A DNA stretch of 64,000 bases, from the NCBI GenBank assembly GCA_029339195.1, contig JAPTJF010000075.1:2185-66184 (forward strand), given 5' to 3'. Of this stretch, positions 667 to 61,922 are shown piece after piece. Positions within the stretch are counted from its first letter, which is position 1. The number at the start of each line of letters is the position of its first letter. The notes beneath the pieces were generated by a model. It worked only from the letters and a program-made list of their open reading frames with translations, was not told where the DNA came from and did not search any database. The stretch is from Micractinium sp. NFX-FRZ (taxonomy: Eukaryota > Chlorophyta > Trebouxiophyceae > Chlorellales > Chlorellaceae). Made by a program: the position numbers and the translations under genes.

Positions 667-3600
667 GCAACTTCATGCTGCTGACAGCGGACGAAGACTC
701 GCCCCTGAAGGCAATCGACTTTGGGCTGGCGGTGTTCTTTGACCCCGAGAAGCTGCCCCGCACGGATCTGGGGTTGGAGGGGACGCCCTGGTGAGCGAAG
801 TCTGTTCTGTGGAGGGGCACCCTGGCAATTACATGACATGTCACAAGGCCAGCCTGTGGGGACGAGCCGACGGGGGGAGAGTGGGGGGCACACCCGGCAG
901 ACAGGCACACCCTGCAGACAGGCTTCTCTCTTCACTCGTTCCCCGGCCGCATGCGGGCCCCTGAAGCCCTCCGAAAAAGCGGAGTGGAGGGCAGGTTACT
1001 GAAGGAAACCAGGCAACACGCTATGGACGGCACCCCGCCAGACAAGCAGTCGTCATGCCAAGGCTCATGCATCTGTCCTGTGTGTTCTTGTACCCCCTGC
1101 CATGGCAGGTTCATGGCCCCGGAGACCCTCTCCTCCAAGACCTACAACGCAGCAGCGTCTTACAAGCAGCCCTCAGCATGCCAAGGCTCCAACATCATGT
1201 CTGTGTTCACTGCCATCCTCTCTGTCGTGGCAGGTTCATGGCCCCAGAGACCCTTTCCTCCGAGACATACCCCGCCTCTGACGTGTGGGCCGCCGGTGTG
1301 ATGGCCTACCAGCTGCTCTCCGGCTACCTCCCCTTTGACGACCCGCGCAACCCCAACGCCCCCGCGCTCTCAAGTGGGTAGTGGGGCGCACGCGCGTGCG
1401 TGTGTGTGTGTGTGTGTGTGTTCTGCTTTGGTGTCGCGGTCACCTTCTCTCTGACAGGTGGCTGTCATTTTGTGTGCGCGCGGATCGCCAAGGGTACTTG
1501 CGTGGCATAGCAGCTGCTGCGCTTGCAGTCCCACGGTGCAGGCATGAGGAAGGGCATCCTCGGTGCAGCCCGCGCTCCCCCACCCACCCACCCCTCGACA
1601 TCTGCACCCCCGTTCTCTCACTGCGCTTGTGCAGCCATTTGGAAGGGCATCCTGACGGAGCAGCCCAGCTTCCGGCGCAGCGCGTGGAAGGAGGTGTCGC
1701 AGGAGGCCAAGGACTTTGTGGCCACACTCCTGGACAAGGTGAGGGTGGTCTGGTTCGTCATTTGCTGATAAAAGGTTTCACTAGACCAAAGCCGGGCACT
1801 AGTGCTGGCAATGCGGTCATTTCGCCGCCAGCACTGCCGCCCCACCCATGTGCCTCGAGTTTGGCAGGCGGCCAAGAACTTGATGCGTCAGACACTGCCG
1901 CACAAAGGTATGGCTTGCCTCCCTTTCAAGGAGAGGTTTTGTGGGGCAGCGGCGCCTGGATCGTGTCCCAAGGAAACAAAGCACTGCCTCCCTTGTTCTG
2001 CCTGCCCCCAGTAGCCCGCGTGCAATGGCTGGAGCGCAACAGACACGCTGCACCACCCCTTGTGCCCCCCCTGCCCTCCCACCCCTACCCCTTTTGAAAA
2101 CACGTCCCCTTGCTTCTCCCCCCCCGCTGCCACCCCCGCCTTCCCCCGCACCACAAGAAGCGGCCCAGCGACAAGGCCATTTACTAACCAGTCCTCCTGC
2201 TCCCCCGCTGCCCCCCCAGGACCACAAGAAGCGGCCCAGCGCCAAGGAAGCGCTGCGCCACCCCTGGCTGTCCCCCGCCTTCCACGAGGCCAAGAAGCGC
2301 CCCATCAGCGCCACGGTGGTGCAGCGCATCCAGGCAAGCAGCGTGTGTGGGATACATCGCATGCCTGTGTGTGCATGTGTGTGTGTGCGCGTGCGTGCAT
2401 GAGTGTGGGAGCCAAGGAGACGCCCCAACAGTGCAACAGTGGTGCAGCGCATCCAGGCAAGCTGTCAAGCTATCCTATGAATGCCATCGCGTGGTTGGTG
2501 CACATTCCTCGGCCCACCAACCGCCTCGCTCGTGCCTTCCCCCTGTGTGTAGCGCTTTGCCCAGACGAACGTGCTGCGGCGCACAATCCTGGAGCTCATC
2601 GCGCAGGCAAGCTGTGTGGTGGGGGGGAGGGTGGTGGGGAGGGTGCTGCCTGCCAAGGGACGCAGCCCCCGGGCTTCCAGAGCAGACCACTTTAGCCTCA
2701 CGTCGTCGTGAGATTGCTGTGTTGTACTTCTGTTGTGCTTCCATTGGTGTTTGTATTCCTGCCGTGCCTCTGTTCTGACAGGCTTCAGATCTTGTGGCGT
2801 GTGCAGGAGCTGCTGAAGATGATGCCAGCCCTATCCCCCACTGTGCATGGCCCCGGGGAGTTTGGCAGGTGAGCGGGCACCCCCAGCGTTGAGTTTTGCA
2901 GAGGTGAGCGGGCACCCGCAGCGTTGAGTTTTGCAGGGGTGAGCGGGCACCGGCAGTGCTGAATTTGGCAGGGGTGAGCGGGCACCCGCAGTGCTGAGTT
3001 TGGCACAGGTGAGCGCGCACCGGCAGTGCTGAGTTTGGCAGCTGAGTGGGCACCTGCAATGTGGAGGGGGCCGTGTGGGCAGAAGTCAATCGGATGTGCG
3101 ACGGCCGAGGAGCGTGCAACCCAGCCTGAGCGTGATCTGCTGGCCAGCAACTGCCGCATGCTCGCCGGCCCTCCCTCCTTGTCCTCCCGCCCTCCCTCCC
3201 AACTTGACTCGCCAGCAGTCTCACCTTCCACCCAACAACTCTCCCCCGCCTGCTCCTCTGCCCGCGCAGCTACCTGGCGCAGCATGGGCAGCAGCAGGGC
3301 GACGGCAGCGACGTCAGCTCGCCGCCAGCGGCAGGTGCCACGGACGGCCCCGCCGACATCTTCCCTATGAGCCCCGAAGGAGGGGAAGGCCTGGGCATGG
3401 CAGGCGACGCCTTGCAGGTGCGGCCTGGTGGGATTTCAAAGGTTTGGGGCGCATAAGGGGGTGACCTGGGGTTGGAGAAATGGTTGCAGGTCGAGGGCAG
3501 AACGGCGGGCGGCCTGGCGGGCGATGGGCACGGAGGCATGTTCCCCGTGAGCATGCAGGGAGGGGAAGCCTGGGCCTGGCGGGGGCAGCCGCGTAGGTGC

Positions 3601-5954
3601 GCCCGCACTTGCTGTTCATCCTCCCTCCCCCCTGCCTGCCTGCCTGCAGCCCCTGCACCTGGGCTCTGCAGCCCTGGGACCCGACATGGCCCGCAGCGCC
3701 TCCATCAAGTGAGCAAGCTTCTGTTCTATTCCTTTTGTTCCCTCCTTGTGCCTGCTTCCTAGGCTGTGATGTAGTCTTGCGCTTTGCAGCCAGCTCAGCG
3801 TGGCATGCGGCGCAGTGCAATCAGCAATGAGAGCTGTGCTGTGCTGTGCTGCGCTATCACGTGCGCTGCAGCGTGGCTGAGCTGGCGTGGCAGCGGGCCA
3901 TGCTGCGCTCACTGCACATGCTGGGCCATGCTGAGCCATGCTGTGCTGTGCTGTGCCGTGCTGGGGCCTCCCTGTGCGCTGCAGTGTGTCTGAGCTGGCG
4001 CGGCAGCGGGCGCGCACAAGCATGGACAGTGCGGGCGGCAGCAGCCACGGCGGGGAGTCGTTCAAATCGGTGAGCACCGGTGCAGGGCATGGGAGTGAGG
4101 GGTATTTCAAGAGTTAAAGTGACGTGTCGGTGCCTGGGATGAACAGAGTGCGGCGGTGGGTCGCCTAGAGCTTGCTCCCGCTGCTGCTTTTGCTCCCCTC
4201 TGCCGGCTGCCGGGCTCACTCCCCCGCTGTCTGCTCCCCCCACGGCAGGGCATGCTCACCCGGCTGGCGTCTCGTGGCCCCGGCGGCAGCGCACACGGCG
4301 GCCGCCTGTTTGTGCGCTCCCCCTCCACGCAGCAGCTGGCCCTACTGGTGAGGGAGCAAGCAGTGCCCGCTCGCCTCCCTTCCTGCCTCTGCTGGCAGCG
4401 GCCCGCTGGTGCTGCATGCCAGCATGCCCCAGTAGCATAGCCTCCCTGCCGCTCCTGCCCAGGGCAAGGGCTGTCGCGTAGCGTATGTGTGTTCGTATGC
4501 GTATCACCCGCTGCACATCCGCCCACCTGCACAGCAGGCACACTGGCAGGCAGGCGCATGTGCCCAGAGCTTCGCCGCCGCCTCACGCCCTCCACCAGCA
4601 CCGTCCTGACACCGCCGCCGCCGCCGTTGCCCTGCTGCAGGCGCGCGGCAGCCAGCGGCAGCGGGGGGCAGCCACTGTGCACGGGCCTGGGGATTACTTC
4701 CGGGTCATGCGGCAAGCCTCTGAGTTGGCAGCCATGGGTGGGTGGGTAGGGGGTGCAGGGTGGGTGCCAGTGGCTGGGTAGGGGGTGCAGGGTGGGTGCC
4801 AGTGGCTGGGTAGGGGGTGCAGGGTGGGTGCCAGTGGCTGGGTAGGGGGTGCAGGGTGGGTGCCAGTGGCTGGATAGAGGGTGGAGGCGCCCACGTACCC
4901 ATGGGTTGGGGGCTTTGGGGGCCACCCCGGGGGCAAGGACGAATGCTGGCAGGCCTCCATCAACTCCATCACCAGACGGCGCCTCCTTCTTTTGATTCGT
5001 GATTTGTAACGACAGGCGACTCCTCTCCACTTCCCTTGCCCCCTTTCTGCAGAGTCTGGGCATGGTCAGGGGGACTACCTGCGCGTGGCCCCCAGGAGCG
5101 AGGAGGAGCGGCTGGCGGCACGCAAGGCGGCCCGCCTCAGCCTCGACACGTCTGGTGAGTGGGGCAGGGGCCCCTGCACGCTAGGCATCCAGTTTGTGCA
5201 TGCACATTGCGCCATGCCTTGCTTGCCTCACTCAGCCTCGGTGCCAGAGACCGCAGCGAGCAGGCAGACGCCACCAGAGGTCGGGCCCGCCAGGCGTTTG
5301 CCCACACAGGCTTTTGTGCTGCCCTCCCTGGTGTGTGCAGCCCACGGGGGGGACGACTTCCAGCAGCTGCTGCGCCAGCTGGAGCACAAGCGCAAGGTGG
5401 GCCTGCCTCCTGCCTTGATTTTAAACCTGTTTTGGTGTGGCTGGATGGCTGGGTTAGGGGGGCAGCTGGAGCCCAAGCGCAAGGTGGGCCTGCCTCCTCT
5501 GTATAAACAACTCAATATGCAACTCTATCTGGCTTGCGCCTGGGCAGAGGGCCACAAACGTTTGCTGGCTGGCTTGCTGGCTGGCTGGCAGGGGGGCGGC
5601 TAGAGCGCGAAGCGGGGTGGGGCTGGCTGGGCGTGGGTCAACCAAGTGGGTTTGGCTGGGGCCACTGCACGTCGGTTGTGGCATGCATCAGGTGGGCGGC
5701 TGGCAGATGGGGGCCTGCAAGGCACCTGGAGCACAGGCATCAAGGGGGTGTGCCGGCCAGAGTGGCGCGTGCTCAGTGTGCCCCTGCTCGCTTCCTGCCT
5801 GCCTGCAACGCCGGTGCTGTGCACGCTCTGCCCTCTTGTCGCTCACATCCTCCGGGCACTTTTGTCGGCTGCAGGTGCCGGCGGTGCGGCAGACCAAGTC
5901 GTTTTGCGGCCTGCCTACCGCGCAGCCTCAGGAGGCAGCAGCGGGGGCGCAGCC

Positions 5955-5985
<31 letters not shown>

Positions 5986-6467: not shown

Positions 6468-6501
<34 letters not shown>

Positions 6502-9115
6502 CAGCAGGCACAGCAGCCGCCGCCGCAGCAGCAGCAGCAGCAACAGCAGAAGCAGCAGGGCTTGACTCTGGCATCCTTCTCAGCGGCAGCGGTGGCGGCA
6601 GCAGCTGCCGGCAAGGGCGGCGGCAGCAGCAGCGGGGGGCCGGCAGGGGCGGTGACCGACCCGAAAGACTTGGAGCAACTGATGCGGCGCATGCAGTTTA
6701 GAAGTAACAAGGGGCTGGGCCCAGGTGAGGTTTTTGTGAGCAGTTGTGTTGGCAGTTGTTGTTGCGGGCTTCAGTTCCTGCAGCCGGGCAAAGAGCCTTA
6801 ATGCTGGAGCAGACGGTGCGGCACATGCACCTTCCGCAGCAGCCAGGGGCTTCCTGCCCAGGCGAGGAATGGGTTTCCTGTCCTTGCTTGATGTGTGGCG
6901 CTCGCTACTGCTGAGAGCACGCTGCACAGCGCAGCTCAAGTGGCCTGCCTTCACTGGTGTATGGCTGGCTGCTAGTGCCCCTGCCCTCCTCCCCCCACGC
7001 CTTGCCCTGCCACAACTCGAAGTGCCCCCACTAGACGAATTGCTCACCCTTCACCTGTTGTTGTCCTTCCCCCATCCCGCCTGGCCCCTTCCTGCTTTCC
7101 TTCCCCCCCCGCAGGCGAGATGAGCGAGGGCTGCCTTGGCTGTCCCCTCTTCTTGCCCACAACCGAATCGCTCTCCCGCCCCTCCCTGCCCCCCCTGCCT
7201 GCCTCCCCCCCGCAGGCGAGATGAGCGAGGGGCTGCGGCAGCTGGGGTACGACCTGGAGCCATCAGAGGTGGCCATCCTCATGCAGCAGCTGGACCTGAA
7301 CTCAGACGGGCAGGTGGGTGCAGCAGGGTTGAAGCCAGCAGGGGGATGGGAGGTTGGTGCCCTCAGGGGGGACTGCAGAGGTGGCTGTCCTGGCGCAGCA
7401 GCTGGACCTGAACTCAGACGGGCAGGTGGGTGCAGTAACAAGCAGGGGGGTGGGAGGATGGTAGCGTGTTGAGGTGCCAATCCTGACGCGGCAGCTGCCC
7501 CGGGTCTCAGACGGGCAGGCGGGTGCAGCAGGGTGTGAAGAGGCAGGGGGATGTGAGGGTGACAGCTTCATGAAGGCCCTCGAACGGTTGCTACCCTGAG
7601 GGAGTTGCTGGACCTGGAGCCAGACGGGCAGGCGAGCTCGAGCGGCTTGCAGGGGCGGTGGGTGAGACGACAGTGAATGCCACGCCCGTGTGTTGGGGGG
7701 CCCTTGACAGCTTTACAATGACGCAGGCTGGCAGCTGGGGGCACAAGCTGGAGCCATCAGAAGGCTGCGCCCGAGCTCGCGGCCAGCTGGAAGTCCCGGG
7801 GCGCAACCACGCCAACCACACACAGCTGTATACTGTTGGCGCTTCACTTGCAACAAACCCCGCCTGCAGGTGCACGCCCCCGAGTTTGTGGCCAGCCAGA
7901 TGGACTGGGCGGCGCTGCAGGAGAGCAACAGGTGCGTGCTGTGTGTGGGGCGGGGGGAAGGGGCAGCGGGCGGGGCGGGTGTGGCGCCTGCGGCTGGCGC
8001 CCGCCTGCTGCCGTGCTGTCTGCTGTGCTGCCCGCGCCCTCGGTCCCTTCTCCGCCACCCCTTGTGGCTGGAATGTGGCGGCCGTCTTTTCAAGGAGCTC
8101 TCAGTTCGACTTGGACAGCTGCCCGACGTACTAGGTTGCACATATGTGGCAGTGACTGTGTTCATCCTGTCCCCCCTTGCAGGGACTTGTGGCTGGAGTG
8201 CGCCCGGCGTGCCTTTGAGGGCCTGGACTCCGACTCGGATGGGCGGCTGAAGGTGGAGAGCTTGCTGGGCACGCTGCGCGCCAAGCTGCCCGCCGCTGAG
8301 GTGGACTATGCCGTGGAGGATGCCCTGGTGGATGCCGGCTACGCAGGTGTGCCATGTTTGCTCCTTCTTGGTCTCTCTCGAGTCTGCTGCAAGTGAACTG
8401 CGGCATTGGTGCTGTGGGGGATGCCTTGGTCGAAAGCCGGTCATGGCGTTGGTGGGCAGGGCAGCCAGGATCCTGTCAACTGTATGCTGCCTCTGGACCG
8501 ACTCACAACACCCGCATGAACCACCAGCGTGGAGGGGACGAGGGGATGTGGTGTTGGCAAGCAAGGGCTCGCGGTGGAGCGTCTGGTTGGCAAGCAAGGG
8601 CTCGCGGTGGAGCGTCTGGTTGGCACGCTGGGCAACAAGCTCCCCGCCGCTGAGGTGGACTGCGCGGCAGGGGAGGCTGGCTGTGCAGGGCTGCTGTCGG
8701 CAGGGCTGAGCAGCGGTGGCTGGGCAGGCCTGCTGGCTGTTGGCCGGCTCCCTCTGTTCCCCTCTCCCTGTGAAACAGGCGCCGATGACGCAAGCTTTCT
8801 GCATGCACATGCTTTCATTTCCTCCGCGCCTCTTTCTTCCTCTTCTTCTTCTTCACTTCGCTTCTGGCCATGACTGCTCCACTGCCCCCCCGGCCCTCGC
8901 CCCTTGGCGCAGATGCGGACGAGGTCGATTTCGACGGCTTCCTGCGCATGGTGCGGGTGGGCTCTTACGACTCCCTGGACGCCTTGGAGCAGTACGACTC
9001 GCGGTACGGCGGCAGCCAGCACGGCAGGCACAGCGTGGACCTGGAGGGCAGCCAGCACGCGCTGCGCCTGGAAAGCGTGCCTGAGGAGACCCCCAGAAGC
9101 GGCGGCGCGCAGTAG
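667..9115 (+). CDS. CDPK: Calcium-dependent protein kinase, 5'-partial, with very long linker
   Basis: Exons: 667-790, 1234-1373, 1635-1738, 2220-2333, 2553-2606, 2807-2868, 3270-3417, 3650-3708, 3985-4069, 4249-4347, 4641-4737, 5053-5154, 5341-5396, 5875-6724, 7216-7313, 7870-7931, 8183-8346, 8913-9115 (stop TAG). All phases join, giving 872 residues here. The kinase C-lobe is clear: SPLKAIDFGLAVFF (DFG), TPWFMAPETL (APE), DVWAAGVMAYQLLSGYLPF and EALRHPWL. The N-lobe lies upstream of the window. A linker of some 550 residues rich in Gln, Ala, Ser and Pro follows. Then come four EF-hand positions: EF1 degenerate (RSNKGLGPGE), EF2 canonical (DLNSDGQVHAPE), EF3 with Ser instead of Glu at loop position 12 (DSDSDGRLKVES), and EF4 degenerate (DADEVDFDGF). 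The expected role is Ca2+-triggered Ser/Thr phosphorylation. The family is certain; whether calcium still controls it is open. Introns after exons 2220-2333 and 2553-2606 use GC donors (CAG|GCAAGC). Confidence 0.9.
1101..1150 (+). pseudogene. Duplicated acceptor plus start of activation-segment exon
   Basis: A near-copy of the intron end and first 42 bases of the exon at 1234 lies 125 bp upstream (acceptor gcag at 1105-1108, then GTTCATGGCCCCGGAGACC). It encodes FMAPETLSSKTYNA but lacks the following DVW motif and has no in-phase donor giving a full kinase domain. It is probably a decoy or relic exon, though alternative use cannot be excluded. Confidence 0.75.
1391..1421. repeat. GT/GC dinucleotide tract
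   Basis: A short microsatellite, cgcgcgtgcg then (TG)n, begins 17 bases after the donor of the kinase exon 1234-1373 and lies within the intron. A second GTGT-rich tract lies at 2363-2402 in a later intron of the same gene. Confidence 0.85.
2858..3056 (+). repeat. Tandem copies of a kinase exon end with its donor site
   Basis: The exon ends GAGTTTGGCAG followed by donor GTGAGCGGGCACC. This junction recurs about five more times as (G/T)AGTTTTGCAG-x-GTGAGCGGGCACCxGCAG, with a period of roughly 32-36 bp. Most copies keep a plausible GTGAGC donor; the last is decayed to CTGAGTGG. The first copy is taken as the real junction because it keeps phase with the exon at 3270. Confidence 0.85.
4738..4877 (+). 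repeat. 32-bp intronic tandem array after a donor
   Basis: Four to five copies of a 32-bp unit (TGGGTGCCAGTGGCTGGGTA plus GGGGGTGCAGGG) start at the donor of the kinase exon 4641-4737. The array fills roughly half of the intron. Confidence 0.85.
5952..6560 (+). repeat. CAG-rich coding tracts (poly-Gln/poly-Ala) in the kinase linker
   Basis: Within the 850-bp linker exon there are CAG/GCA runs at 5952-5982, 6418-6430, 6472-6500 and 6526-6560, read as poly-Gln or poly-Ala. They are in frame with the kinase. The antisense frames give poly-Cys/poly-Leu and are rejected as genes. Confidence 0.85.
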
Positions 9116-36638: not shown

Positions 36639-38127
36639 ATGCCATTGCATGCGTGCCACATTGTGATGCCTCCGTGCAGTGCGCTAAGTGGCTTTTTGCG
36701 CTGCCGCCTGCCTCCGCGCCGGTGCGCCTCTTATTTGGCCAACCGCAGTGTTGCATTTGTGTGTGAGGTGCTGGCCCCGCCCGCATGTCAACAGCACGTT
36801 GTCCCGGCCTTGAAACCACCCCACCTGTGTTTGCACAGATTGGCTGCTAGGGGGGCACTCTCAACACACGCTCGTACAGTGCACCAGCGCTTGCTGCCAC
36901 GGCCAGCCGCTGGCCGTGTCGGCACTTGGCGGGGGCATCTACCGGGCAGCCGACTTTGAGGCGCATGCAGGTGGGGCAGGGGCGGCGAGCTGGGGCTTTG
37001 GGGCATGAGGTGCGATGCACTCAGTGGCGGGGAGGGGACTTGCAGGGGGCTACTGCACCGCAATGCGGGGGCACGAAGTAGCAGCGAGCCAGTGCCGGCT
37101 GGCGTGTCCGCTCCGGGGCTACCGCTCACCGTACCACGCCTCCCTCCCTCCTGGGTCGCTCCCCGCAGGCTGTGCGCCGCACAGGCACTGGCAGGAGACG
37201 CTGCGGGTGGGGTCTTGGTTGAAAGTGAGGGCGGCAAGCCAGAGGGTGGGGCAGAGCCTTGTGGTGGCGGCGCTGCAGAGGAGGGCGGCGGGAGGCTGCT
37301 GCGGCAGCGGCAGAGCGGGATGGGGCAGCGGGAGCAGGCACAGCACGCACAACAGCATGCAGCGCAGGCACAGCAGGCGCAGCAGGCGCAGCAGGCACAG
37401 CAGCAGGCAACGCTTCCACAGCAGGCGCAGCAGGCACAGCAGGCTCAGCAGCAGAGGCACAGCAGGCTCAGCAGCAGAGGCACAGCAGGCTCAGCAGCAG
37501 AGCCAGGAGGTGCAGGATCCCCCGATGCCCCAAGCCCAGGAGCTGGCGCCCCCGGCACAGCAGTAGTTCGACAGCCCCGTCGGGGACAGGGGTTGCGAGA
37601 TGTGCCACCGGGAGCTGGGCGAAAAGTGAAGTGTAGTTTGCAAGCAAGTGATGCAGCTGCCGCTGACGCTGACCGGCACAGCAGGCACAGCAGGCACAGC
37701 CGCAGGCCACCCAGCAGCAGCAGGCACCACGCATGTCAACAGCCTCGCTCTTCTGTCCCGCTGTGCCCCGCAGGGTGGTGGCGGCGTGCAAGGACCTGCG
37801 AGCGCCCGTGGCATTGTGGCTGTCACGGGTGATAGACGCAACGCGCCCCTCCGAGCTACTTGCCAGAGCGTTCTTGGTCGGGTGCCAGGCGACACAGCCC
37901 GGGCCCGGATCATGCGCCTGCCTCACCGCCTCACTCTGCAGGAGCGCCGCCACCTGTACACACCCTCCCACCCCTGGCAAGGCGAGAAATCAAGCCCAAA
38001 TGTCGAGCCACCTCCCCCCTGCCCCTGCCTGCAGGAGCGCCGCCTGCGACTGCAGCTGGAGCAGGGGCGCCACGCTGCGGCGGCGCATGGCATGACCACA
38101 GCGCTGCGCCTGGCGGGCATGGCTTAA
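36639..38127 (+). CDS. TDBD-like (FxxHAG) domain protein
   Basis: Exons 36639-36767 (start tentative), 36880-36970, 37169-37224, 37567-37625, 37774-37888 and 38035-38127 (TAA) join in phase to give about 180 residues. VAFVCECTSACCHGQPL, then GGIYRAADFEAHAGCAPHRH and WQETLRVGSWLK resemble the C-x-C...HG...FExHAG core of the TDBD/SAND-like domain of plant PHD-finger nuclear proteins. A second Cys cluster (GCEMCHRELGEKVVAACKDL) and a helical C-terminus (LRLQLEQGRHAAAAHG) follow. A small nuclear regulator is plausible but inferred. Acceptor tag at 37564-37566 skips a CAG-rich tandem array. The penultimate intron needs a GC donor (CAG|GCGACA). The 5' end is uncertain: a hydrophobic short frame at 36204-36506 might be an upstream exon or unrelated. 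Confidence 0.6.
37368..37508. repeat. CAG-rich array including three 23-bp units
   Basis: Imperfect CACAGCAGGCG units lead into three exact copies of a 23-bp unit (GCACAGCAGGCTCAGCAGCA plus GAG) at about 37438-37506. The array is interpreted as intronic in the FxxHAG gene, because exons at 37224 and 37567 join in phase without it. Confidence 0.75.
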
Positions 38128-42300: not shown

Positions 42301-45300
42301 AACACACTCATTCCTAAATAGCAGGCCGTGCCGACCCACCAGCAGCATGCGGATAAAGTCGAGAGGCCGCCAGCCCACCCAGCAAACCACAGCCCAGCAG
42401 CCCACCCAACAAAATCAGTACTAGCTGGCATGCGTTCTCAGCCCAGCCACCTGCAGCATGTGTATGAAGTCGGATGCCGACAGCATGCCCAGCACGCGCC
42501 CCTGCTCGCCATCCCACAGCGGCGCTGACGCAATGCCTGCACACACGTGCATGGGCACAGGGGGGGCGGCGGCATTGTGGAGGGAGGCGGGGGGGCACGT
42601 TGGGCATCAACAGCGGGGGTGTGACTCGCAGCAGGCGGGCCGGGGGTCATAAGCGGGGCAGGAGCATTGGGACGGCAGGGCAGGGCATGCAGGCGGGGCC
42701 TTGGGCACCTGGGGCACACTGGAACAGAGAAGCAGGGGGTGATTCCACAGCCTCCCTCCCCTCCCTGGCTGGCGCACCCTGCCTCAGCACTCCTCCCCTC
42801 CCCGCCCTCCCTTCCTGCCTCCCCCCGTGCTGGCTCACCCTGCTCCTGCCTGCCTCCCTGCGCTCCTGGCCGGGCTCACCCTGCTCGAGCACGCCCTCCC
42901 TGCCCTCCCTGCCCTGGCTCACCCTGCTCGTGCAGCGCGTGGAAGGCCTGGCGCATGGGCAGGTCGACATCCAGCAGCACCACCTTGCCGCTCTCGGGGA
43001 TGAGCTCGTAGGCTGAAGGGAGGGTGAGGGTGAGGGGTGGGCAGGAGGGAGGGCGGGCATGAGGAGGAGGGGTGGGATGGGGGAGGCTCAGGCGGGAGCT
43101 TATTGACCGGGCAGTTGCGAGAAGAAAGATGGGCCGAGGGGCATATCGGTAAGCTCGGCGAATCGGCAGGCGGGAGGGGCAGGTTGGCACCCAGCAGCAC
43201 CAACTTGCCACCCCCACGGCTGAGCTCGTAGGCTGAAGGGGGGGTGACGGGCGCGGGGAGACAGGGGACGCGCAAGGGAGGGAGGCGGGCACAATGACAG
43301 GGGCAATGGCAGGGGCAGGGGGAGGGTAGATGTGGGCGTGTGTGTGCCGAGTACCCTTGAATGTCCACGCCAGTAGTCCACCGGTAGTCCAAGCAAGCAC
43401 AGTGCTTACTCACCCCCTGCTCCCTCCCTCCCTCACCCGAGTGATGGTTCAGGAATTCGGCCACCTTGCGCTTGGTGTACATGGGCTCATCCGCCTGCAC
43501 GGCAATCGGGGCCAGCACGCCGCCGCTGCCGCCGCGCCCGCCGCCCCCGCTGCTGCCGCCTGCGTCGCCCGTCGCCACCTCCATGTCCGCCACTGCAGGC
43601 GGGGAGGGGGGGATATGATGACGGGCATGGGAAAACAGGTTGGGTTGGTTTCGTAATGAAGTGATGCCGGGTGTTGCTCGCCGCCCCCCATGTCCCCCAC
43701 TGCAGGACGGCAGGGACAGACGAGGGCGGGGGGGAGCGGCATGCTGTGTTTGCGTGGGTCGGCGTCGTGTGGAGGGCGAGAGAGGTGGAAACCAGGCGAG
43801 CGTTGAGAGGGGGGCAGCCAGCTGAGGTACGCATTTCGCCTAGGGGGCGGCAGCAGCATCCGCATGCAAAGCAGCCAAGCAGCGGCACACTTGGCAAGCA
43901 GCGCACACCACCTGCCAAACTCCCTGCCCCGCTACACACCCACCAGCCCCGCCCCCCACCTGACTGCGCCCGAGAGGAGGGCGCGGTGCCGCCGTGGCTC
44001 AGCTGGTGGTGAAGCATGCCGGCCTGCGGCTGGTGCTGCGGGTGCTGCTGTACGCCGTGCTGCTGCTGCTGCTGCTGCTGCGGGTGCGCATGGTGCGGGT
44101 TCTGCGCGTGCTGTTGCTGCTGCTGCTGCTGCAGGCTCTGGTGCAGGCCGCCCGGGGGGGGATGTCTGCGAGGACAGTGTGTGTGCGGGGCGGGCGAGCG
44201 AGCCGGCGTGTGGGCGGCCAGGCCACCCGACATGCCTGAGTGCCTGGTGCCCAACGCTGGGACGACGCGCATGCATCACTCGTGCACAAGGCTGGGACGA
44301 TGTGCATGCATCACTCCGTGCACAAGGCTGGGACGACGCGCAGGCACCACTCGTGCACACACATATGCACACACAGCCACCCGTGCTTCTGCGCCGCCGC
44401 CTCCTGCCCCTTCAAAAGTGGCTCCAAACATGCCCCTCCACCACACAGGCCTCACATGCTAACGATCCTGCTTGTGCACATGACGCACACTCACCCGTGC
44501 TTCTGCGCAGCCGCCTCCTGCCCCTCCGATTTGGCTCTAAGCATGCCCCCTCCACCACACAACCCTCACATGTTAACAATCCTGTCTGTGCACACAACGC
44601 ACACTCACCCGTGGTTCTGCGTCGCCGCCGCCGCCTGCCCCTCCGGCTTGCGCACAAACAGCCAGTTGTTCACGTTGCCCAGCGGGTCGGGCATGAAGGG
44701 CTGGCTCTCGTCGTGCCGCCACTCGCCGTCAACGATGAACTTGTACTGGTGGTAGCTGCAGGCACGGAGGGGGCGTGGAGAGCGGGGGCAGGGGTGGGGG
44801 CACGTTGATCATCAGTACGCAGCACTGAATGAGTGCAGGCCCAGGCCACCGGTCATCAGCAATGATCTTGCAATGCTGCTGGCTGCAGGGGGGACGTTGG
44901 TTTAGGTGATTTCCATGTGACGGCAAGGAAGCTGTGCAGGGCGCGACGTCGACGGCAAGGGACGTTGCCCTACAGTGAGGGCTGCAGGGAGGCCGAGGGA
45001 GGGACCAACGTTTGATGACATGACAAAGGAGCAATGGCAAACTAGCACGATGCCGCACACGATCGGTGCGTTGGGGTGGGCCGGGGCGACCGGCACCGCC
45101 GGGAAGTGAACCAGGAACCAGCAGCCTCACTGGAGCTGGCAAAGAGAAGGAAGCTCTCCCGCCTCCACCCTCCCAGGCACTCGTGTCCACCAGCGGCAGC
45201 CACGGCAGCGGCGGCAAGCTGGCGGCAGCACGGTTGGCAGCGCACGCAGCACACCATCACCACTGCCCCAGGCGGCCAGTTCATGCGGAAGGCCGAAAGG

Positions 45301-50155: not shown

Positions 50156-50274
50156 GGTCAGTAAGCAGCTGCGACAGGCCGACAAGCCCGGCCCGCCTCT
50201 GAGCGGGCTGCCTCCCCGCGGCCCGCCCGCAGTGCAGCTGGAGTTGTAGCAAGCGGGGCCAGTTCTGACGGAGG

Positions 50275-53829: not shown

Positions 53830-56800
53830 CTACTTGTTCTGCCTCTGCAGGTTCTGGTTGATGACCGCAATCTCCTGGTTGTAAGTGTCGATCATTTGCT
53901 GCAAGTGGGGTGGGGAGCGGTGGGTGTGGTGGGTGGGCGGGTGGCGGAGAAGGAGGGCAGCCGCCCATTGCCCGATTGGGGTGTCAGCCAGCACCAGCTG
54001 CACTGCACCCCACCCAGCTGCCGCTGCTAATGCTGCTTCCACTCCACTTTTGCTGCAGCCACCCCACACTCCCCCCTCAACCTCACGCCAGGATGTCTGT
54101 CACACTTGCTTGCCTGCACCCCACCCCCAAACCCCACATCGTGCCCAACACTCAGTGGATGTTCACCACCACCACCACCCCACCACCACCCCCCACCTGC
54201 ATGCGCCACCCCTTCCCAAACACACACACCGCCATCAACCGATAAGGGGCAAGCCCGCACCTGCTCAAGTGCCCCGGTGGGCTGACTGGTGGGCTGGACC
54301 CGGTGGGCACCACCTACTTGCACACATGCACCCCCTTCCCAAACCGTGCACCACCGTGTGAACCGATCAAGGCCAAGCCCCACCTGCTTGAGCGCCCCGG
54401 TGGGCTGCTGAGCTGGCAACACCCCCTCCCCCAAAAACTCTCCCAACAACATGCCACCATTCACCAAAAGGGGCCACACCCGCACCTGCTTGAGCGCCTC
54501 GTGGACGGGGTCCTCCGAGGGGTTCACCCCATCCATGCCCACGCGGCTGCCTTTGGGCGCCTGCGGGGTGTGGAGGGAAGAGGAGCAAGCGACGGAGCGG
54601 GAGGGTTGTCAGGAGGAGCAGCAGGCCAAACAGCTTCAGCACGACCGCAGCGGAGGGGTGAGGAGCAGGCAGAGCAGGCGCGGCAGGCGCACAAGCACCA
54701 GTGCTGCTGCTTCATGATTATAGCCAGCCAGCCGGCCAGGCACGCTTGTGGGGTGCCTGCTCACCTTCTCCTCCTTGTCACTGGTGGTCCCAAAGGTGGG
54801 CTCCCCGCCGGCCAGCAGGGCGTCGATCAGGGGGTTGCTGGGGGTGGGGCTGCGCGGTGTGATGGTCGGGGAAGGGCAGAAGAAGACAAGGTGTGTCAGG
54901 CAACGGCAGCCGCGTGACATGACCACAGCATGGGGGAGGCGCAGCGGCTGGCACGCATATTGCACAAGTTAAAAGATAAAAATAACACGTGATGATGAGA
55001 ATGCCAGGCCACGGTATGATGTGACGATGACTACGCCATGGCTTGACGATGATGAGTGTCAGCAGGCAGGCCAGGTCAGCGGGCCTCACCTAGGGCTGGC
55101 GGGGGTGGCAGGGGCGGGGGACGGGCTGGGGGACGGGGTAGGGGTGGTCTCGTAGCCCTGCACAACCGTGGCAAGCATGTGAGGGCGACGGTGGGCAATC
55201 AGCAGGCCGGCTTACAGAGCCGTCGCATACGCCCACCTCTGCCAGCGTATATACAGATCAGCCAGGAGGCACAGCATAGCACGGGCCCAGCCCAGCGCAG
55301 GCACAGCACGACTTCAGAGCACAAGTAGAGTTGTAGCACATGTCGCCGAGGGGGAGGTTCTTGGGGGGGGGCGGCCAGCAGGCATGATGCATTGCGCGGC
55401 ACAGCAGGGACTGCGCCTTACAGCAGGCATGATGCACAGCAGGCGCAGCAGGCGCAGCAGGCTGACCTGGACGTAGATGTCGCAGAGAGTGAGGTTCTGT
55501 GGTGTGGCCAGCGTCACGTACTTGCCGACGCCCGCGCACTCCACCGACACGGCGGCGTTGGCGGGCAGCTTGATGTTCTGCGGGCGGAAGTTCACAGCGG
55601 GGGCGGGTGACGATGTGATGGGGGAGTGCGGCGAGTGAGCATCGAATGTCGGGGGGCACACACGCATGTGCTGCACCGGGCCGCCTGTCCCCGTCAGCTG
55701 GCAGCACAGCACCCCTCAAGTTGGAGCCGCACATGAGTCTGACTATGCAAATGATGCCCCACACATAAGCGATTGCCCCACATGTGCTGTAGCACTGAAC
55801 ACCTACCCAGGCCCCCTTACCATGGCGCACACGGGGTTGGACATGCCGTTGTTGGCGGGGGAGTCGCCCACAAACAGGAAGGCGCCCTCTGTTGCCTTGC
55901 CCGCCGTCACCTGGATGCTGGTCACCGACAGTTGCTTCTGCGGGGTGGCAAGAGGTTGCACGGGGAGCGAGACAGGGGAGCGTGGGCAAGCCGTCACCGA
56001 AATGGAGGGGACACACATGGGGGAGGGGCAGGTGGCTGCAGCAGCATGGTGTGGCCGTGTGGCAGCAGGTGCGTGCCGGCATGAAAGTCAGCAGCACCCC
56101 AGGTGCTGAGCCAGCTGTTGGGGCTGCCCTCCACTTCACCACTTGTTGCCCCAGCCCATCCAACTCCCAAATCCGTACGAATACAAGCAATTCCTCGCGT
56201 GCCCCCTGCTCCCCGCCAGCTCAGCCTCACCGGCAGCACCACTGTGAAATAGTTGCCGGAAGGGTCGGTGGCGGTGGCGCATGAGTCGCACAGGCCGTCC
56301 ACGGCGCGCAGGGCCTGCGGGGTTGAGGCACGGCACAAGGGCAAGGGTTGAAGGCGGGGCTTTGCAGGGGCGAGCCCCAAGCCGAAGATAGAGAGACAAG
56401 ATGGCGCAGGACGTCCACGGCAGGCAGCGCCTGCGGCAGAGGGGGCGAGGCACACCAGCATGGATGGCTGCTTGGCTGGCAGAACGGTACCGCCAGCGCA
56501 GGCCTGCCTGCCAGCCGGCCAAGCGTCCAGGCACAAAGGCGCACCTGGGAGTAGAGGGCGGAGTTGTCCTGGGTGCCAGAGATGCCCAGCCCCACAAAGT
56601 CCTGCAGCGGGTGGCCTGCAAACCAAACGCAGAGGGCGGAGAAATAACACAAACGTGCCCGGGTGGACAGGCGGGTGAGGGAGCGCGGCTGGCGCGGGGA
56701 GACGAGCAGGCACAGCATGGCAGTCATAGCAGGGGTGCAGGTTGAGTTGCCCCCTCCTGGCCTGTGGCCCCCCTCACGCCATTGCACAGCCGCAGCGACA

Positions 56801-59800
56801 GGAAGGGGCGGACACAATTGTAAGCACGCACGGTCCTGGCACGCACCGCAGTTGGCCACGGAGGGGTCGGAGGAGCCGTCCACGGGGGCCTGCTCCTGCA
56901 CTGGCTCACGCTTGGCGTGGTCTGTTGCAGGGAGAGGAGGCAGGGTGAAGTTGGCAGTTGTGAGGTTTGAGCGGTAGGCAGGGGACCTGTGGGGGTGGCA
57001 GGCCGGGTGGGCGGGGCGGGCGGGCAGAGAGGCAGCTTGCCCTGCCCTAATGACTGGCCACCTTGCACATGCAGTAGGGGGGATGCCTGGGGGCAGTAGA
57101 AAGACTGGTCGTGCATCACACCTTGGAGGCACCTTGCCTGCCCCCAAAATTTGCATGCACATAGATGGATGCTAGCTCCCAAAGCCAGGGCTCACTCACC
57201 GGGGCAGGAGAGGGAACTGTCATGTACCACTGATCACCACACTTGGAGGCAAAAACGGCGCTCACCGGGGCAGGACAAAAACTTGTCGGCGTTGGACCAA
57301 ACCTTGGACACCGTGCCTCCAAACCCTACCCTACACAGCTAGACTCTAACTACCGGTTGGCTGCAGACCCACTCACCGGGGCAGGAGAAGGACTTGTCTG
57401 CGTTGGACCACACCTTGGGCACGGTGCAGGCGCGGGTCTCGGGGTCGATGCAGAAGCCGGGCTGGTTGGGGATGAACTCAGCGATGCACACGCAGGCGCA
57501 GGCGGTGTCGGAGAAGTTGCCTGCACATTACCGTGGGGAGGAACGAATGGTATGAGTGATTGGTTTGAATGGGGGTGGAATGAAGGGTTTCAGTGGGGGC
57601 CTGCAGCAATGCTCGGGGTTGAAGTCGGACTAATGCTGCACAACAAGACGCATGGTCGTTCGGGGGCTGTATGGGTGGAAGCTGTGGAGGCCAAACAGTT
57701 AGTGGCATGCCGCATGCTGCCCAGCCATCCTCCCCCCATGAGCTGCTGCTGCCGCTGCCAACAGCCGTCTCTGGCTGCCGCTGCTGGCAGCCCGGCGCCC
57801 AAGGGGGGGCTCACCGTTGACGCACGACACGGCCTGGCAGTACTGCCCCGATGGGAAGTACATGTCGGTGGGGGCGTCGCATCCCTGCTTGGCGCGCTGC
57901 TTGCGGTACTCGCTGGCGCTCACTGGGTTCTTAATCCAGTCGATGACCTGCGGGGGGGAGGCAGGATCGTGGTAGTGAGGGGAGAGGATGTTAAGCGTGG
58001 AGGAGACACTCAAGGAAGGGCAAGTGGGAGAGGGGCAGGCACAAGCACAGCAGCACATGCTGCCGCCCCTTCGACACACACAAGCAATGCAGCTTTGCCC
58101 TGCCAAGCGAAGCTGCCGCACCTCGCTCATGGTGACGAACCACGTGTTCTCAAAGCCCAGGGCATAGTTGATGAACTGGCTCATGGCGGCTGCAGCGGGG
58201 GTGGGTGGCAGGGCAGGTTGGTGGTGGGGGCAGGGGTGTGAGGGGGCCTGGTGCGGTATGTGTGAGGTGCAGCAAAAGGTGCAGGACGGTGTGCGCACCC
58301 AGGCAGCTCAACAACAACCCGCCCGCACATGTCCTGCGCATGGGCAAGGCCTGCCGCCAGCCTAGCCCAGCCCCGGTGGATGTGGCAAGTCCAACCGGTC
58401 CCCAAACAGACCCAAACCCAAACCCAATTAGGCCACGGCCGGCAAGCACCCACCCACCTGCGCGGGTCTTGTCCATGAGCCAGGCGGCGTGGATGTAGAC
58501 GCCCACAGGGGACTTGTTGCTGCGGGTGGGCAGGGAGAGCAGGAGGCACCCAGGGAAGGAATGGTTGGCCACAGCCGGAGGGAGACCATTCAATGCCTGC
58601 ACACCTGATCGGCCCTGCCCTGCCCACTGTTGCGCAAACCTGTGATGCTCCCGCAGCGCCGCCCAATGCTGCCAAGCCCACAATGTGTGCACCATGCACT
58701 GGCTGCACTCTGGTGAAACAAACACGAGCGGGCTCACCCCTCGTAGCTGCGGTCGAACTCGAGCTTGTAGGCCTCGTACAGGTCGCCCTGCACAGCGGGC
58801 ACAGCACAGGACGGAACCGGGTGAGCGGCATGTCTGCACGCGTGGCTGGAGCATGCATGCAGGGCCCCAATTCCAGGCCACCGTCCTGCAGCGACCGGCG
58901 GGTGGGTGCGCAGACAAGGTGGCACCCGGGTGGGGCGGCTCCACTTGACAGCCTGACTCAAACCCGCGCCTGGGGTCTGGTTTGACAGCCCACCCTCGGA
59001 CCCGTTCCGGACATTCCACACACCATGCCCTTCCACCACAAGTCCCCATAGCACGACTCAATCTCACCTGGGGGTCCATGTTTGTGAGCACCACGCCATC
59101 CTCGTTCTGGATGTCCCACATTGGGAACTCCCACAGGCCGGGCAGGGTCTCGTTGACGGAGCAGGGGCCTGCAAAGGTGGGGCAGAGGGCGGAGGCAGGT
59201 TGAGCTGGCCGAGCTGCAAGCGGATGCCGGAGCAGTGTGGGCAGGCTGTACGATCCATTGGCGAGGCAGGCAGGCAGGCAGGCACCAAGCAACTGTTGTG
59301 GTGTGCTGTGCGCCTGCCGAAGTCGGAGGGCTGGCGGCGGCAGGAGGGCGGACACCGGCAGCGATCAAGGGCCAGCAGCAGTGCCGCGGGCTCACGTCAC
59401 ACAGAGGTGAGGTGAGGCTGTACACGGGCACAGGCAGTACAAAACCACGGGTGCCCAGCGCACCGGTGCCCAGGTCGCAGCGCTGCGGGATGCCGTGGTC
59501 CATGGTGTAGGGCCACAGGCGGGTGTTGCCGTCGGGGGAGGTGGCGGTGGGGAAGGGCTCGGGGATGGAGGAGTCGTAGGTGAAGCCTGCAGGTGAAGGA
59601 TGCAAATGATTGAAACACTTTCAGAGTGCTGACGTGAAATGGGGCTTGGAAGGTGGGGCCTGCAGGCGAGGGAAGGGGCGCCCATAATGTAGCACGGTTC
59701 CACCGGGTGGCAGGCTGGCTCATCGATCGCTGCTGGCGCCGGGCTGCTGTGCCAAGCGCGAGGCGGCAAGCTGCACCTGCGCCTGTGCCCCCCTGCTAAC

Positions 59801-61922
59801 ATGCATCCCTCACCGTTGGCTGCCAGGATGGCGCGCTGCTCGGGGGAGTGCATGAGGAAGGGCGAGCGGAAGCCCTGCAGCGCGGGGGGATTAGAGGTTT
59901 GGGTGGTCAAAGGATGAGGCACCGCAGGTGGGCGCGGGTGCGGCCCCCAATCAACCAATGGGCGAGGCAAGGCTGAGCAAGTGGGTGTGCCGACCCCTCG
60001 ACAGCTCCAGCTTCAGACCGCGTGCAAGCACAGCGCATGCCACACACGCAAGCAAGGGGCAGGTTTGAGCAGCAGAAGGGGTTCAACGCAGCCGGCCCGG
60101 AAAGCCCACCCTCGGGCATCTCCTCTACCGGCACACGTTTGTTTGTACATACACCCAACAGCAAACACTCCGGTAAGAATGTGACGTGAAAAGAAACAAC
60201 GCAGGGCAAGGCACACACCCGGATCTTCTCGAGCGGCACGTGGGCGGTCTGGTTGAGCCACAGCTTCATGCCCACAATCTGGAACAGGTCTGCACAGCAG
60301 GTGGTGGCCACGCCAGGCACAGCAGCGGGTTGGCAGGCAGGACAGGGTGGAGGGCAGGCAGGCAGGCGCAGCAGGTGGTGGCCATGCCAGGCACAGCAGC
60401 GGGTTGGCAGGCAGGACAGGGTGGAGGGCAGGCAGGCAGGCGCAGCAGCAGATGCCCATGCCGGCGCACATGCTGTGCCGCTCTCTTCCCTCCCCCTTCT
60501 CTTCACCGCAACCACGTGGCCGCCCGTGTTCAACCAACCTTGGTGTGCGCGCTGTGCACACTCACCGGGGTCAGCCACGTGGTACAGCGTGTGCGTCGCG
60601 ATCTCGTGGTTCTTCATGTACACCTCCTGGACCAGGTGGTAGTCCGTGTAGTTCTGGCTCACAAACCAGCTGCAGTTGCGCGGGTGGGTAGAGGGGATAA
60701 GTAGAGGGAGAGGTGCATGGCATGGCAGGCCGTGCAATTCTGGCTCACAAGCCAGCTGCTGCCGCCAGGGTGGGCGAGCTGGCGGCTGCCGTGCCGCCAA
60801 GCACGCCTCAAGCGTCCACCGCCCCCCAGTCGCGCTGCGCTGTCCCTGCTGGCATCCCGTGCTGGCATCCCGTGCTGGTGCCAGCCTGGCGTGACGCACG
60901 TGGCGGGGATCTCGCAGCCCTGGGGGTTGTAGGCCTTGGAGGTGATGTCGAGGATGACGGGCATGGTGGTGACGGTGATGGCGTCATCATTGGTCTGCGG
61001 AGCAAGAGTACAAGAAGAGGGAGGTCAGAGGTGGGGCAAGGGAGGGGTACGGTAGGGAGGCAGGCACGGTGCTAGCGGCTGTCACTGGGTTTCGGGGTTA
61101 GGGTTTGTGTGTGGGGGGCAGCATGGATCAGGGAGTGCACCGTGGCGGAGGCTGCACGGGAGGAGCGCTTGTGGACGGCCGGTGCATGCATGCTTTGCAC
61201 AAAATGCGTGGCATGCCCGGGGTTCTGAGCGGGCCGATTGGCGTCCTGCGCTGCGCCGGAAGAGGACTTCCCACCTGCCACTGGTCGGTGGGCAGAGGCC
61301 CTCACTGCTTGCCACCAACAACGTGGGGGTGGCCCAGCTGCCCTGCCCGGCCGCCCGGCCACCACTCATCAGCTCACCAGCACCACGAATTGTGGGATGT
61401 CGGCGGGGGCGAAGCCGCCGGGGATGCCGTGGGAGGCGCACTTGCAGTTGGGGAGCACGCAGGAGGCGGGGCAGTTGTAGCCGGGTACCTGCGGCAGGGT
61501 GGGTGTGTTAGTGGGTGGGTAGAGGCAGCACGCGGGCGGCGGGGCAGTTGTGCGCATGGGCCCGCAAGGCAAGGAGGCCGACGGTTGGCTGCAAGCACAC
61601 AAACGTTGCAAAGCAGGCAAGAAGGCGAGAGAGGACTAGCAAGCAGCATGCGGGCGGCAGACGGGAGTCGCGCGGCAGCGGCGGCGGCAGCAGTGGATGT
61701 GTTTAACTCAGTGCACACATGGCCCTGCTGCATTTATTGCTAGATGCCACAGCACAGCTCCAGAGGCAAGCTGATCGGCTGCGATTGCGCCTGCCCCACC
61801 CGGTCAGCGCGCACAAGCCCTGCCGCACACACCTGCACCGTCTCCTGTGCGGATACGGCCAGGCAGCTGCTGGCAAGCAGTAGCAGGGCCGCCCAGGCGG
61901 CGGAGCGCTGAGCTCGCTGCAT
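53830..61922 (-). CDS. CDA: Secreted chitin deacetylase (CE4) with fucolectin-like C-terminal domain
   Basis: Twenty-two minus-strand exons: 61922-61833, 61488-61378, 60994-60900, 60669-60566, 60289-60219, 59874-59814, 59586-59464, 59168-59068, 58787-58738, 58519-58458, 58189-58122, 57947-57815, 57520-57377, 56921-56847, 56615-56545, 56314-56231, 55937-55821, 55577-55467, 55157-55090, 54849-54765, 54560-54486 and 53898-53830. All phases join, giving 655 residues. A signal peptide is followed by a CPASCVLPNCKC module. The CE4 motifs come next: TNDDA (Asp70 base, Asp71 metal), HTLYH (His125 and His129, metal), GFRSPF (Arg160) and VYIHAAW (His279). The first motif is TNDD, not the usual TFDD. 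Residues 415-557 (DGSSDPSVAN, SNPVCAM, GVGKYVTLATPQ, LTLCDIYV) resemble an F-type lectin/F5-8C beta-sandwich. A Pro/Ser linker and a Gln-rich coil end the protein. It should remove acetyl groups from chitin-like wall polymer. Confidence 0.93.
54255..54500 (-). repeat. Echoes of the HEALKQ exon end with its donor, three copies
   Basis: The exon end EALKQ|GTGCGGGTGTGG at 54473-54500 is followed in the intron by copies reading TGALKQ|GTGGGGCTTGGC (near 54381) and TGALEQ|GTGCGGGCTTGC (near 54258), about 101 and 123 bp apart. Each keeps a potential GTG(C/G)GG donor. The first keeps phase with the last exon; the others would add residues in frame with stops nearby. Confidence 0.85.
57190..57420 (-). 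repeat. Echoes of the SFSCP|G exon end with donor, three copies
   Basis: The junction at 57371-57417 (TCC TGC CCC G|GTGAGT in gene sense, preceded by VWSNADK) recurs at about 57261-57310 (VWSNADKFLSCP|GTGAGC) and in shorter form at 57191-57215 (CTCTCCTGCCCCGGTGAGT). A more diverged copy may lie at 57095-57130. Two echoes keep perfect donors. Confidence 0.9.
60298..60448. repeat. 74-bp tandem duplication next to a deacetylase acceptor
   Basis: Two almost identical 74-bp units (GTGGTGGCCACGCCAGGCAC ... GGCAGGCAGGCAGGCGCAGC) occur in the intron adjoining the exon that starts at 60289. Confidence 0.9.

What the first reader, a model, noticed from the sequence alone, without database searches (positions are those of the whole stretch)
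1101..60770. Genome-scale pattern: introns carry degenerate tandem echoes of the adjoining exon edge plus splice site
In at least six unrelated genes (CDPK, SnRK1 beta-gamma, chitin deacetylase, Y14, the FxxHAG gene, the lumenal-protein gene) an intron begins or ends with partial copies of the neighbouring exon together with its donor or acceptor. Clear cases are near 1109/1234, 2146/2220, 2309/2429, 2858-3056, 3361/3541, 3861/3974, 5376/5463, 7100/7213, 7270/7380/7470/7603, 34256/34372, 37936/38031, 41790/41909, 43181/42961, 43688/43581, 44370-44650, 54255-54500, 57190-57420 and 60731/60645. Spacing is mostly 85-220 bp. Duplications span the exon-intron boundary and have then decayed. This implies repeated intron growth by junction duplication and a large reservoir of decoy splice sites. 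I know of models of intron gain by tandem duplication at AGGT, but not of such a systematic junction echo across a region.
Basis: partly seen in the sequence, partly recalled or inferred. Interest (0 to 1): 0.88.

Follow-up and report, generated by a model that had tools for sequence, protein, structure and literature searches.

The report
Splice-junction tandem duplications in algal introns
In this green-alga genome many introns carry a decaying, roughly 100-base head-to-tail copy of the neighbouring exon edge with its splice site, apparently ordinary small tandem duplications that survive because one of the two splice sites keeps working, so introns grow and gain decoy splice sites.

Summary
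The echoes are real: 25 of 27 pairs tested at the cited places beat all 2,000 Markov controls. They are not local. In 344 kb (window plus 28 stretches of the same 66-Mb Chlorellaceae-like genome) 160 tandem pairs score >=40, against 1 in a Markov control, with a size class at lag 65-135 (91 pairs, mode 100-120). That class spans splice junctions more than random placement gives (46 vs 26.6; outside the window after relabelling 35 vs 20.2). Intronic copies decay as noncoding DNA and are single in relatives at the four CDPK sites checked. Copies are head-to-tail (119 direct, 3 inverted). 0 of 17 in-register pairs joins donor to acceptor, so this is not AGGT-type intron birth. Much of the junction excess follows from one-sided decay and loss of exon-internal duplications; one of six simulated settings comes close to the truncated look. 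Open: the ~105-bp size, few young copies, short exon-side extents, AT-rich spacer (GC 0.563 vs 0.643). Verdict: real, genome-wide in the sample, new variant of a known kind.

The parts
1054..1270 (+). CDPK-like gene: 124-bp tandem duplication over an acceptor; copies 1054-1145 and 1177-1270; acceptor boundaries 1109 and 1234
   Evidence: SW 85, 76/97 identical; alignment with labels; relatives P0001, P0002 and P0017 lack the echo peptide
1541..1666 (+). acceptor echo: boundaries 1541 (echo) and 1635 (used), spacer 1572-1628
2143..2247 (+). acceptor echo, copies 2143-2176 and 2214-2247, lag 71; echo AG lost
   Evidence: SW 57
2289..2462 (+). donor echo (GC donor), copies 2289-2339 and 2411-2462, lag 122
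   Evidence: 46/52 identical
2858..3041 (+). 35-bp minisatellite that carries a donor; different size class
   Evidence: TRF period 35, 5.3 copies
3357..3604 (+). weak donor echo, copies 3357-3425 and 3537-3604, lag 180
   Evidence: 51/69
3833..4011 (+). acceptor echo, copies 3833-3898 and 3945-4011, lag 112
   Evidence: 57/67
5376..5498 (+). donor echo, copies 5376-5411 and 5463-5498, lag 87; spacer 5412-5462 without clear likeness to either flank
   Evidence: 35/36; flank test p 0.28 and 0.94
7080..7236 (+). acceptor echo, copies 7080-7134 and 7185-7236, lag about 103
   Evidence: 48/56; relatives have one EMS/DMS motif
7264..7640 (+). four-copy decaying array of an EF-hand exon end plus donor (about 7264, 7376, 7470, 7603)
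   Evidence: 55/60 for the first two copies; relatives have one copy; copies 3 and 4 read by eye
34257..34419 (-).
   Evidence: 40/48; RRM_1
37936..38044 (+). weak 16-bp acceptor echo, 37936-37951 and 38029-38044
   Evidence: 16/16, score 32
41791..41946 (-).
   Evidence: 36/39; AMPK1_CBM and CBS
42957..43258 (-). acceptor echo, copies 42957-43037 and 43177-43258, lag 220
   Evidence: 68/82
43564..43715 (-). weak echo, copies 43564-43608 and 43673-43715
   Evidence: 36/45
44362..44645 (-). 114-116-bp array of 2-3 copies reaching into an exon
   Evidence: score 184; TRF period 114, 2.3 copies
54200..54504 (-). three-copy array, lags 123 and about 101
56288..56436 (-). acceptor echo, copies 56288-56320 and 56404-56436
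57261..57427 (-). chitin-deacetylase-like gene A, echo copies 57261-57316 and 57372-57427, lag 111
60637..60774 (-). chitin-deacetylase-like gene A, donor echo, copies 60637-60688 and 60723-60774, lag 86; the matching intron of paralogue B has none
   Evidence: 42/52

Best explanation
Head-to-tail duplications of about 80-130 bp arise in this genome. When the duplicated unit spans a donor or acceptor, the result is exon-site-intron-exon'-site'-intron'. The gene keeps its protein by using one of the two sites, so the event is close to neutral, whereas units wholly inside an exon are mostly lost. The copy left in the intron then decays as noncoding DNA. Its exon-derived part stays recognisable longest because only one partner drifts; the intron-derived part drifts in both copies and by indels, leaving the look of an exon edge plus splice site echoed about 100 bp away. 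Each event lengthens the intron and adds a decoy site. SHOWN here: head-to-tail orientation, size class, junction excess, noncoding decay, single copies in relatives at the sites checked, gene-copy specificity in the paralogues compared. INFERRED: neutrality, which site is used in the cell, and the molecular source (most likely end-joining of staggered breaks after fill-in, or a related replication error).
For: 119 direct vs 3 inverted pairs at lag 65-300. Lag 65-135 class, n=91: junction-spanning 46 vs 26.6 by random placement, 0 of 300 simulations as high; with one copy non-exonic and placement kept inside genes, 41 of 81 vs 24.4. Exon-intron pairs crossing a junction: 50 of 55 vs 58% expected. 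Mismatches in exon-vs-echo columns are near equal over codon positions (0.123, 0.132, 0.165; p=0.06); gaps in the 47 truncated pairs are 1 bp 20 times, 2 bp 6, 3 bp 1 (whole aligned block). Site distances mod 3 are 21/19/25 of 65, stops 0.51 vs 0.50 in control. Polypyrimidine tracts stand upstream of 3' echoes beyond the aligned block (0.709 vs 0.529, n=17, p=6e-6). Introns with a truncated junction echo: median 401 (n=41) vs 276 nt. Paralogues: of 7 introns matched by position between the two deacetylase-like genes, 4 have a pair in one gene only and none in both. L032 has a 114-bp acceptor duplication, its paralogue L033 none at score >=36. The CDPK paralogue L030 shows no echo of the FMAPE acceptor (best score 14, against 66 for the same test in the window gene) but has a 94-bp duplication over the donor of that intron. 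Simulated random 105-bp duplications aged 0.1-0.3 substitutions per site with frequent indels give intron-side extent <30 in 0.78 (observed 41 of 50), length/lag 0.53 (observed 0.52) and close identity quantiles.
Against: The matching simulation was picked after the fact from six settings; four earlier settings with ages uniform 0-0.5 gave extent <30 in only 0.33-0.49. Even the best setting puts 23% of exon-side extents above 55 nt, against 9 of 93 observed, and 51% of intron-side extents under 15 nt against 32 of 50. With a constant rate, young contiguous pairs should be common: I estimate roughly 21 of 65 junction pairs at >=0.90 identity and contiguous from the detection rates (treating its fractions as independent); 3 of 65 are seen. 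So either the rate fell or something else truncates young echoes. Some echoes are perfect yet unlike on the intron side (47/47 in L007, 29/29 in L005). The size mode (100-120) and the AT-rich spacer are not predicted. Pairs wholly in intergenic DNA are rare (2 vs 15.2), though that label contains at least one missed gene.
Confidence: 0.66

Rival explanations
1. A junction-directed process: breaks or template switches are placed by transcription or splicing near splice sites, so that an exon edge of about 33 nt plus the splice consensus is copied into the intron about 100 bp away.
For: Source profile peaks at -36..+12 (3.9-5.5% of junctions at score >=32) and is 0 of 862 for exon windows -72..-36; exon-side extent median 33, intron-side 12 nt over 93 junction echoes, 9 at identity >=0.88; 16 of 19 junction pairs at >=0.90 identity are spaced; exon-side extents run shorter than in the simulation; intergenic pairs rare.
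Against: One-sided decay plus random tandem duplication of age 0.1-0.3 gives most of the same anatomy; intron-side flanks keep weak homology (p=2.6e-5 for 51, 0.0038 for the 21 at identity >=0.88, but 0.083 for the 11 acceptor cases among these) and splice-end composition; exon-intron to intron-intron ratio is close to random after time correction; inverted copies almost absent.
Confidence: 0.19
2. Echoes are functional alternative exons or alternative splice sites kept by selection.
For: Echo dinucleotide still AG or GT in 81 of 101 tallied sites (a pair can be tallied twice); the HMM reads a few as exons; 10 of 65 echo segments are in frame and open.
Against: No clear codon-position bias, frame-breaking gaps, distances even mod 3 and stops as in control, relatives have a single copy at the four CDPK sites (three of the four are clean gaps, the fourth is a 3-residue difference).
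Confidence: 0.06
3. Intron birth by tandem duplication of an exonic AGGT.
For: Same class of mutation; introns and exon copies involved.
Against: 0 of 17 in-register junction pairs are donor-to-acceptor (10 acceptor-acceptor, 7 donor-donor); introns that carry echoes are long.
Confidence: 0.02
4. Assembly artefact or chance low-complexity similarity.
For: GC-rich, repeat-rich sequence; recent copies could be collapsed or mis-joined.
Against: Copies mostly differ by 7-22% (10-90% points); order-4 Markov control gives 1 pair against 160; inverted pairs 3; exon-edge probes against other introns give 0 to 0.001.
Confidence: 0.03

Closest known systems
Small tandem duplications from fill-in and end-joining at staggered breaks (PMC8355091, passages read; rice insertions of Vaughn and Bennetzen 2014 seen only as a cited reference there, content recalled)
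   Same: Direct head-to-tail copies, short units, local.
   Different: That paper calls small tandem duplications the commonest short (<100 bp) insertions in human DNA; here there is a separate class at 65-135 with a mode at 100-120, survivors sit at splice junctions, and most look spaced. No enzyme dependence tested.
Intron gain by tandem genomic duplication, AGGT model (review PMC3443670, passages read; Hellsten 2011 and Gao and Lynch 2009 seen only as references)
   Same: Tandem duplication changes exon-intron structure.
   Different: Here existing introns lengthen; in-register pairs are donor-donor or acceptor-acceptor (17 of 17).
Tandem exon duplication with mutually exclusive exons (recalled)
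   Same: Exon sequence recurs in a neighbouring intron.
   Different: Copies are mostly exon edges, out of frame, without protein constraint.
Introners (PMC9860276, search listing and start of abstract only)
   Same: Genome-wide change in introns.
   Different: No sign of a dispersed family among the few spacers searched, but that search was partial.

Membership tests
Small tandem duplications | Copies in direct orientation, local | tested here: met
   119 direct, 3 inverted at lag 65-300
Small tandem duplications | Copies adjacent, no unrelated filler | tested here: inconclusive
   75% of 65 junction pairs are spaced; one simulated setting with decay gives similar spacing; weak intron-side homology
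Small tandem duplications | Little or short microhomology at ends | not tested
   ends are too decayed for most pairs
Small tandem duplications | Dependence on end-joining or fill-in enzymes | not testable with these tools
   needs mutants
AGGT intron gain | Donor of copy 1 in register with acceptor of copy 2 | tested here: not met
   0 of 17 in-register pairs
Tandem or mutually exclusive exons | Copies under protein-level constraint and in frame | tested here: not met
   a few pairs labelled exon in both copies may be exceptions (4 wholly exonic pairs)
Introners | Spacer or insert belongs to a dispersed repeat family | tested here: inconclusive
   No listed hit overlaps the 5 window spacers in the stretches searched, but only 39 of 608 and 19 of 20 first-look candidates were scored and simple repeats are skipped
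Minisatellites | Short period, placement without regard to junctions | tested here: not met
   lag <60 class has no junction excess (5 vs 8.3), the 65-135 class does (46 vs 26.6)

The most novel reading that the evidence does not exclude
Splice junctions in this lineage are hotspots of a size-limited (~105 bp) duplication process tied to transcription or splicing. Introns grow mainly by repeated copying of their own junctions, each event is tolerated only when the stretch between used site and decoy is AU-rich, and a past burst seeded a large reservoir of decoy splice sites, perhaps at a third of junctions if the simulated detection rates are right.
Probability: 0.2. Interest if true: 0.8.

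Novelty: new variant of a known kind. Interest (0 to 1): 0.52.

Why it matters
Where introns get their length and their cryptic splice sites is usually argued from transposons and random drift. A genome in which a visible fraction of introns (77 of 627 in the sample with a pair of lag 65-250) carries self-derived copies gives datable, natural experiments on splice-site competition: a copy of a working site placed about 100 nt away, with the outcome of selection readable in the sequence.

Tried and rejected
Templated insertion of a short piece from about 100 bp away: considered because most pairs at >=0.90 identity are spaced. Set back because only 3 inverted pairs exist, because lag varies less than spacer (coefficient of variation 0.15 vs 0.31 for lag <=150), because 3' echoes keep a polypyrimidine tract beyond the aligned block, and because echo introns are about 125 nt longer, 90% interval 38-158. 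Against that: in the same, copy length correlates with lag (+0.30) about as strongly as with spacer (-0.31), so the lag is not fully independent of copy length.

Intron insertion with a long target-site duplication, or spacer copied from elsewhere: the best match in the sample had median score 31 for 33 spacers and 31 for control introns, but the fraction scoring >=40 was 0.27 vs 0.09, some of it from other copies of the same arrays or simple sequence.

Splice motif at the exon-side end of the block: none enriched (AG 0.47 vs 0.39, GT 0.20 vs 0.40). Gene conversion keeping echoes fresh: not testable without alleles. Repeat-directed C-to-T mutation: changes run towards G and C (0.177 vs 0.079).

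Rfam found nothing at gathering score. A phage comparison with one 171-base query found nothing. A first BLAST self-search was replaced because blastn appears to drop matches near the main diagonal (that reason is recalled).

Literature: ten searches (one search returned none). I saw titles and abstract starts of the top 2-20 rows only; none of these describes this pattern. Most subscription papers are not held, and two that I asked for were not.

Dropped before counts: copies with strong 1-12-base periodicity; overlapping pairs reduced to the best; lags below 15 or above 600 not searched; 16 short exons inside duplicated blocks relabelled as intron for the robustness run.
Full report
WHAT WAS CHECKED. 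The window is G000:C75:2185-66184 of a 66.07-Mb, 838-contig genome, GC about 0.65. The CDPK-like protein at its left end is closest to Micractinium conductrix (61%, full length) and then Chlorella vulgaris (57% over 68%), so this is a Chlorellaceae-like green alga. I aligned the cited pairs: 25 of 27 beat every one of 2,000 Markov controls. The exceptions are 2858/2893 (part of a 35-bp minisatellite) and 57190/57250.

GENE MODELS. No annotation was available, so I trained an HMM gene finder on the window plus 28 stretches of 10 kb (344 kb). It settled on 26% exon and 53% intron, donor CAG|GTGAG with about 7% GC donors, acceptor TGCAG|G, and 1,280 junctions. Pfam recovers AMPK1_CBM plus CBS, RRM and GDSL domains, and a polysaccharide deacetylase match just below cut-off, in 4 of 6 proteins tried. 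The HMM missed an ARM-repeat-like paralogue at 23451-25280, so its intergenic class is not clean.

SIZE CLASS. A banded self-alignment found 160 tandem pairs scoring >=40 (order-4 Markov control: 1). Lags fall into two groups: minisatellites at 15-45, and a class peaking at 100-120 with a second hump at 180-220. Direct pairs outnumber inverted ones 119 to 3 at lag 65-300.

JUNCTIONS. Of 91 pairs with lag 65-135, 46 span a splice junction against 26.6 by random placement; 45 have one mostly-exon and one mostly-intron copy against 25.4; wholly intronic pairs are 14 vs 23.5, wholly exonic 4 vs 6.5 and wholly intergenic 2 vs 15.2. Minisatellites show no such excess (5 vs 8.3). The excess survives relabelling of suspicious short exons, use of exons >=60 nt only, exclusion of the window, and a null confined to genes. 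Of 55 exon-intron pairs, 50 cross a junction (58% expected).

DOES IT NEED A JUNCTION MECHANISM? Mostly not, I think. An exon piece can get into an intron by tandem duplication only if the unit crosses the junction, and it stays visible longer because the exon partner is constrained. Comparing exon-intron pairs of divergence <=0.10 with intron-intron pairs <=0.20 gives 14:12, close to the random 28.7:23.6; with 0.06, 0.08 and 0.12 as cut-offs the ratio is 4:4, 9:7 and 19:13. In high-identity pairs the similarity often stops 3-15 nt into the intron (intron-side extent <30 in 41 of 50 at identity >=0.85), which at first looked like a copied exon edge only. Four simulated settings with ages uniform to 0.5 did not reproduce it (0.33-0.49). 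Of six further settings, the one with ages 0.1-0.3 and more indels came close (0.78; length/lag 0.53), though with more long exon-side extents than seen (23% above 55 nt against 9 of 93). Intron-side flanks keep weak homology, and 3' echoes keep a polypyrimidine tract beyond the aligned block (0.709 vs 0.529, n=17). These last results speak for a duplicated unit that included intron; the simulation alone would not settle it.

FATE OF THE COPIES. Mismatches are near even over codon positions, gaps break the frame, distances are near even mod 3 and stops are as in control. At the 4 CDPK sites where the HMM read an echo as coding, relatives have a single copy, clean at three and as a 3-residue difference at the fourth (four relatives aligned, three of which cover the first site). 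So these look like decoys, not alternative exons. Junction pairs in register are 10 acceptor-acceptor, 7 donor-donor and no donor-acceptor, which excludes AGGT intron birth for them.

POLARITY. Between the two neighbouring chitin-deacetylase-like genes, 7 introns match by position; 4 carry a pair in one gene only, none in both. The CDPK paralogue L030 shows no echo of the FMAPE acceptor (best score 14; 66 in the window gene by the same test) and has its own 94-bp duplication over a donor. In a second paralogue pair (L032/L033), one gene has a 114-bp acceptor duplication that the other lacks at score >=36. There the echo sits at the position of the other gene's acceptor, has lost its AG, and the downstream copy, with a diverged intron tail, now serves (my reading of the alignment).

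UNEXPLAINED. (1) Young contiguous pairs are few: 3 of 65 junction pairs, where I estimate about 21 at constant rate. (2) The spacer between used site and decoy is AT-rich (GC 0.563 vs 0.643, n=44, p=1.6e-9) while the far flank is not significantly so (0.623), and simulated detection does not cause this. Selection for intron recognition beside a decoy is my guess. (3) Why about 105 bp. (4) Scarcity in intergenic DNA. (5) Exon-side extents shorter than simulated.

EXTENT. 43 junction-spanning pairs in 344 kb (relabelled genes) extrapolate to about 8,000 detectable ones in 66 Mb, if the sample is representative; pairs are unevenly spread (16 of 29 loci).

CHANGE AFTER CHECKING. Confidence in the best explanation went from 0.68 to 0.66 and in the junction-directed rival from 0.18 to 0.19, because the recount of exon-side extents fits the simulation less well than I had written; the introner test is now inconclusive because the genome search scored only part of its candidates.

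Noticed in passing
window 17403-19486, 23451-25280, 50649-52624: ARM-repeat-like genes with a shared cysteine-rich (MYND-like, recalled) C-terminus; many relatives on C75, C162, C421 and other contigs. The HMM missed the middle one.
   Followed up: partly
window 60325-60465: The intron repeat of 74-bp period here matches 15 listed places on 11 contigs at 70-90%; possibly a dispersed intronic repeat or simple GGCAGGCAGG sequence.
   Followed up: no
window 2334, 2606 and genome sample: GC-AG introns are frequent: about 7% of HMM donors have GC; at 2334 the echo copied the GC donor too, 2606 read by eye.
   Followed up: no
window 53833-64000 with L031: Two chitin-deacetylase-like genes stand head to head, about 40% identical (246 of 616 aligned residues); 7 of gene A's 24 introns match one of gene B by position.
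   Followed up: partly
exon-versus-echo alignments in the sample: Echo differences run towards G and C (0.177 of A/T sites, 0.079 of G/C sites), and CpG sites differ twice as often as other C/G sites (0.214 vs 0.096).
   Followed up: no
L032 and L033 (contigs C722 and C792): Two small contigs hold diverged copies of a deacetylase gene; the larger aligned pieces are about 72-90% alike, and one intron is nearly unalignable.
   Followed up: partly
3' echoes in the sample: Branch-point-like CTNAY is less frequent upstream of 36 echo acceptors (0.22) than of used ones (0.40); random intronic CAG 0.14. Decoys may be silenced by branch-point loss.
   Followed up: no
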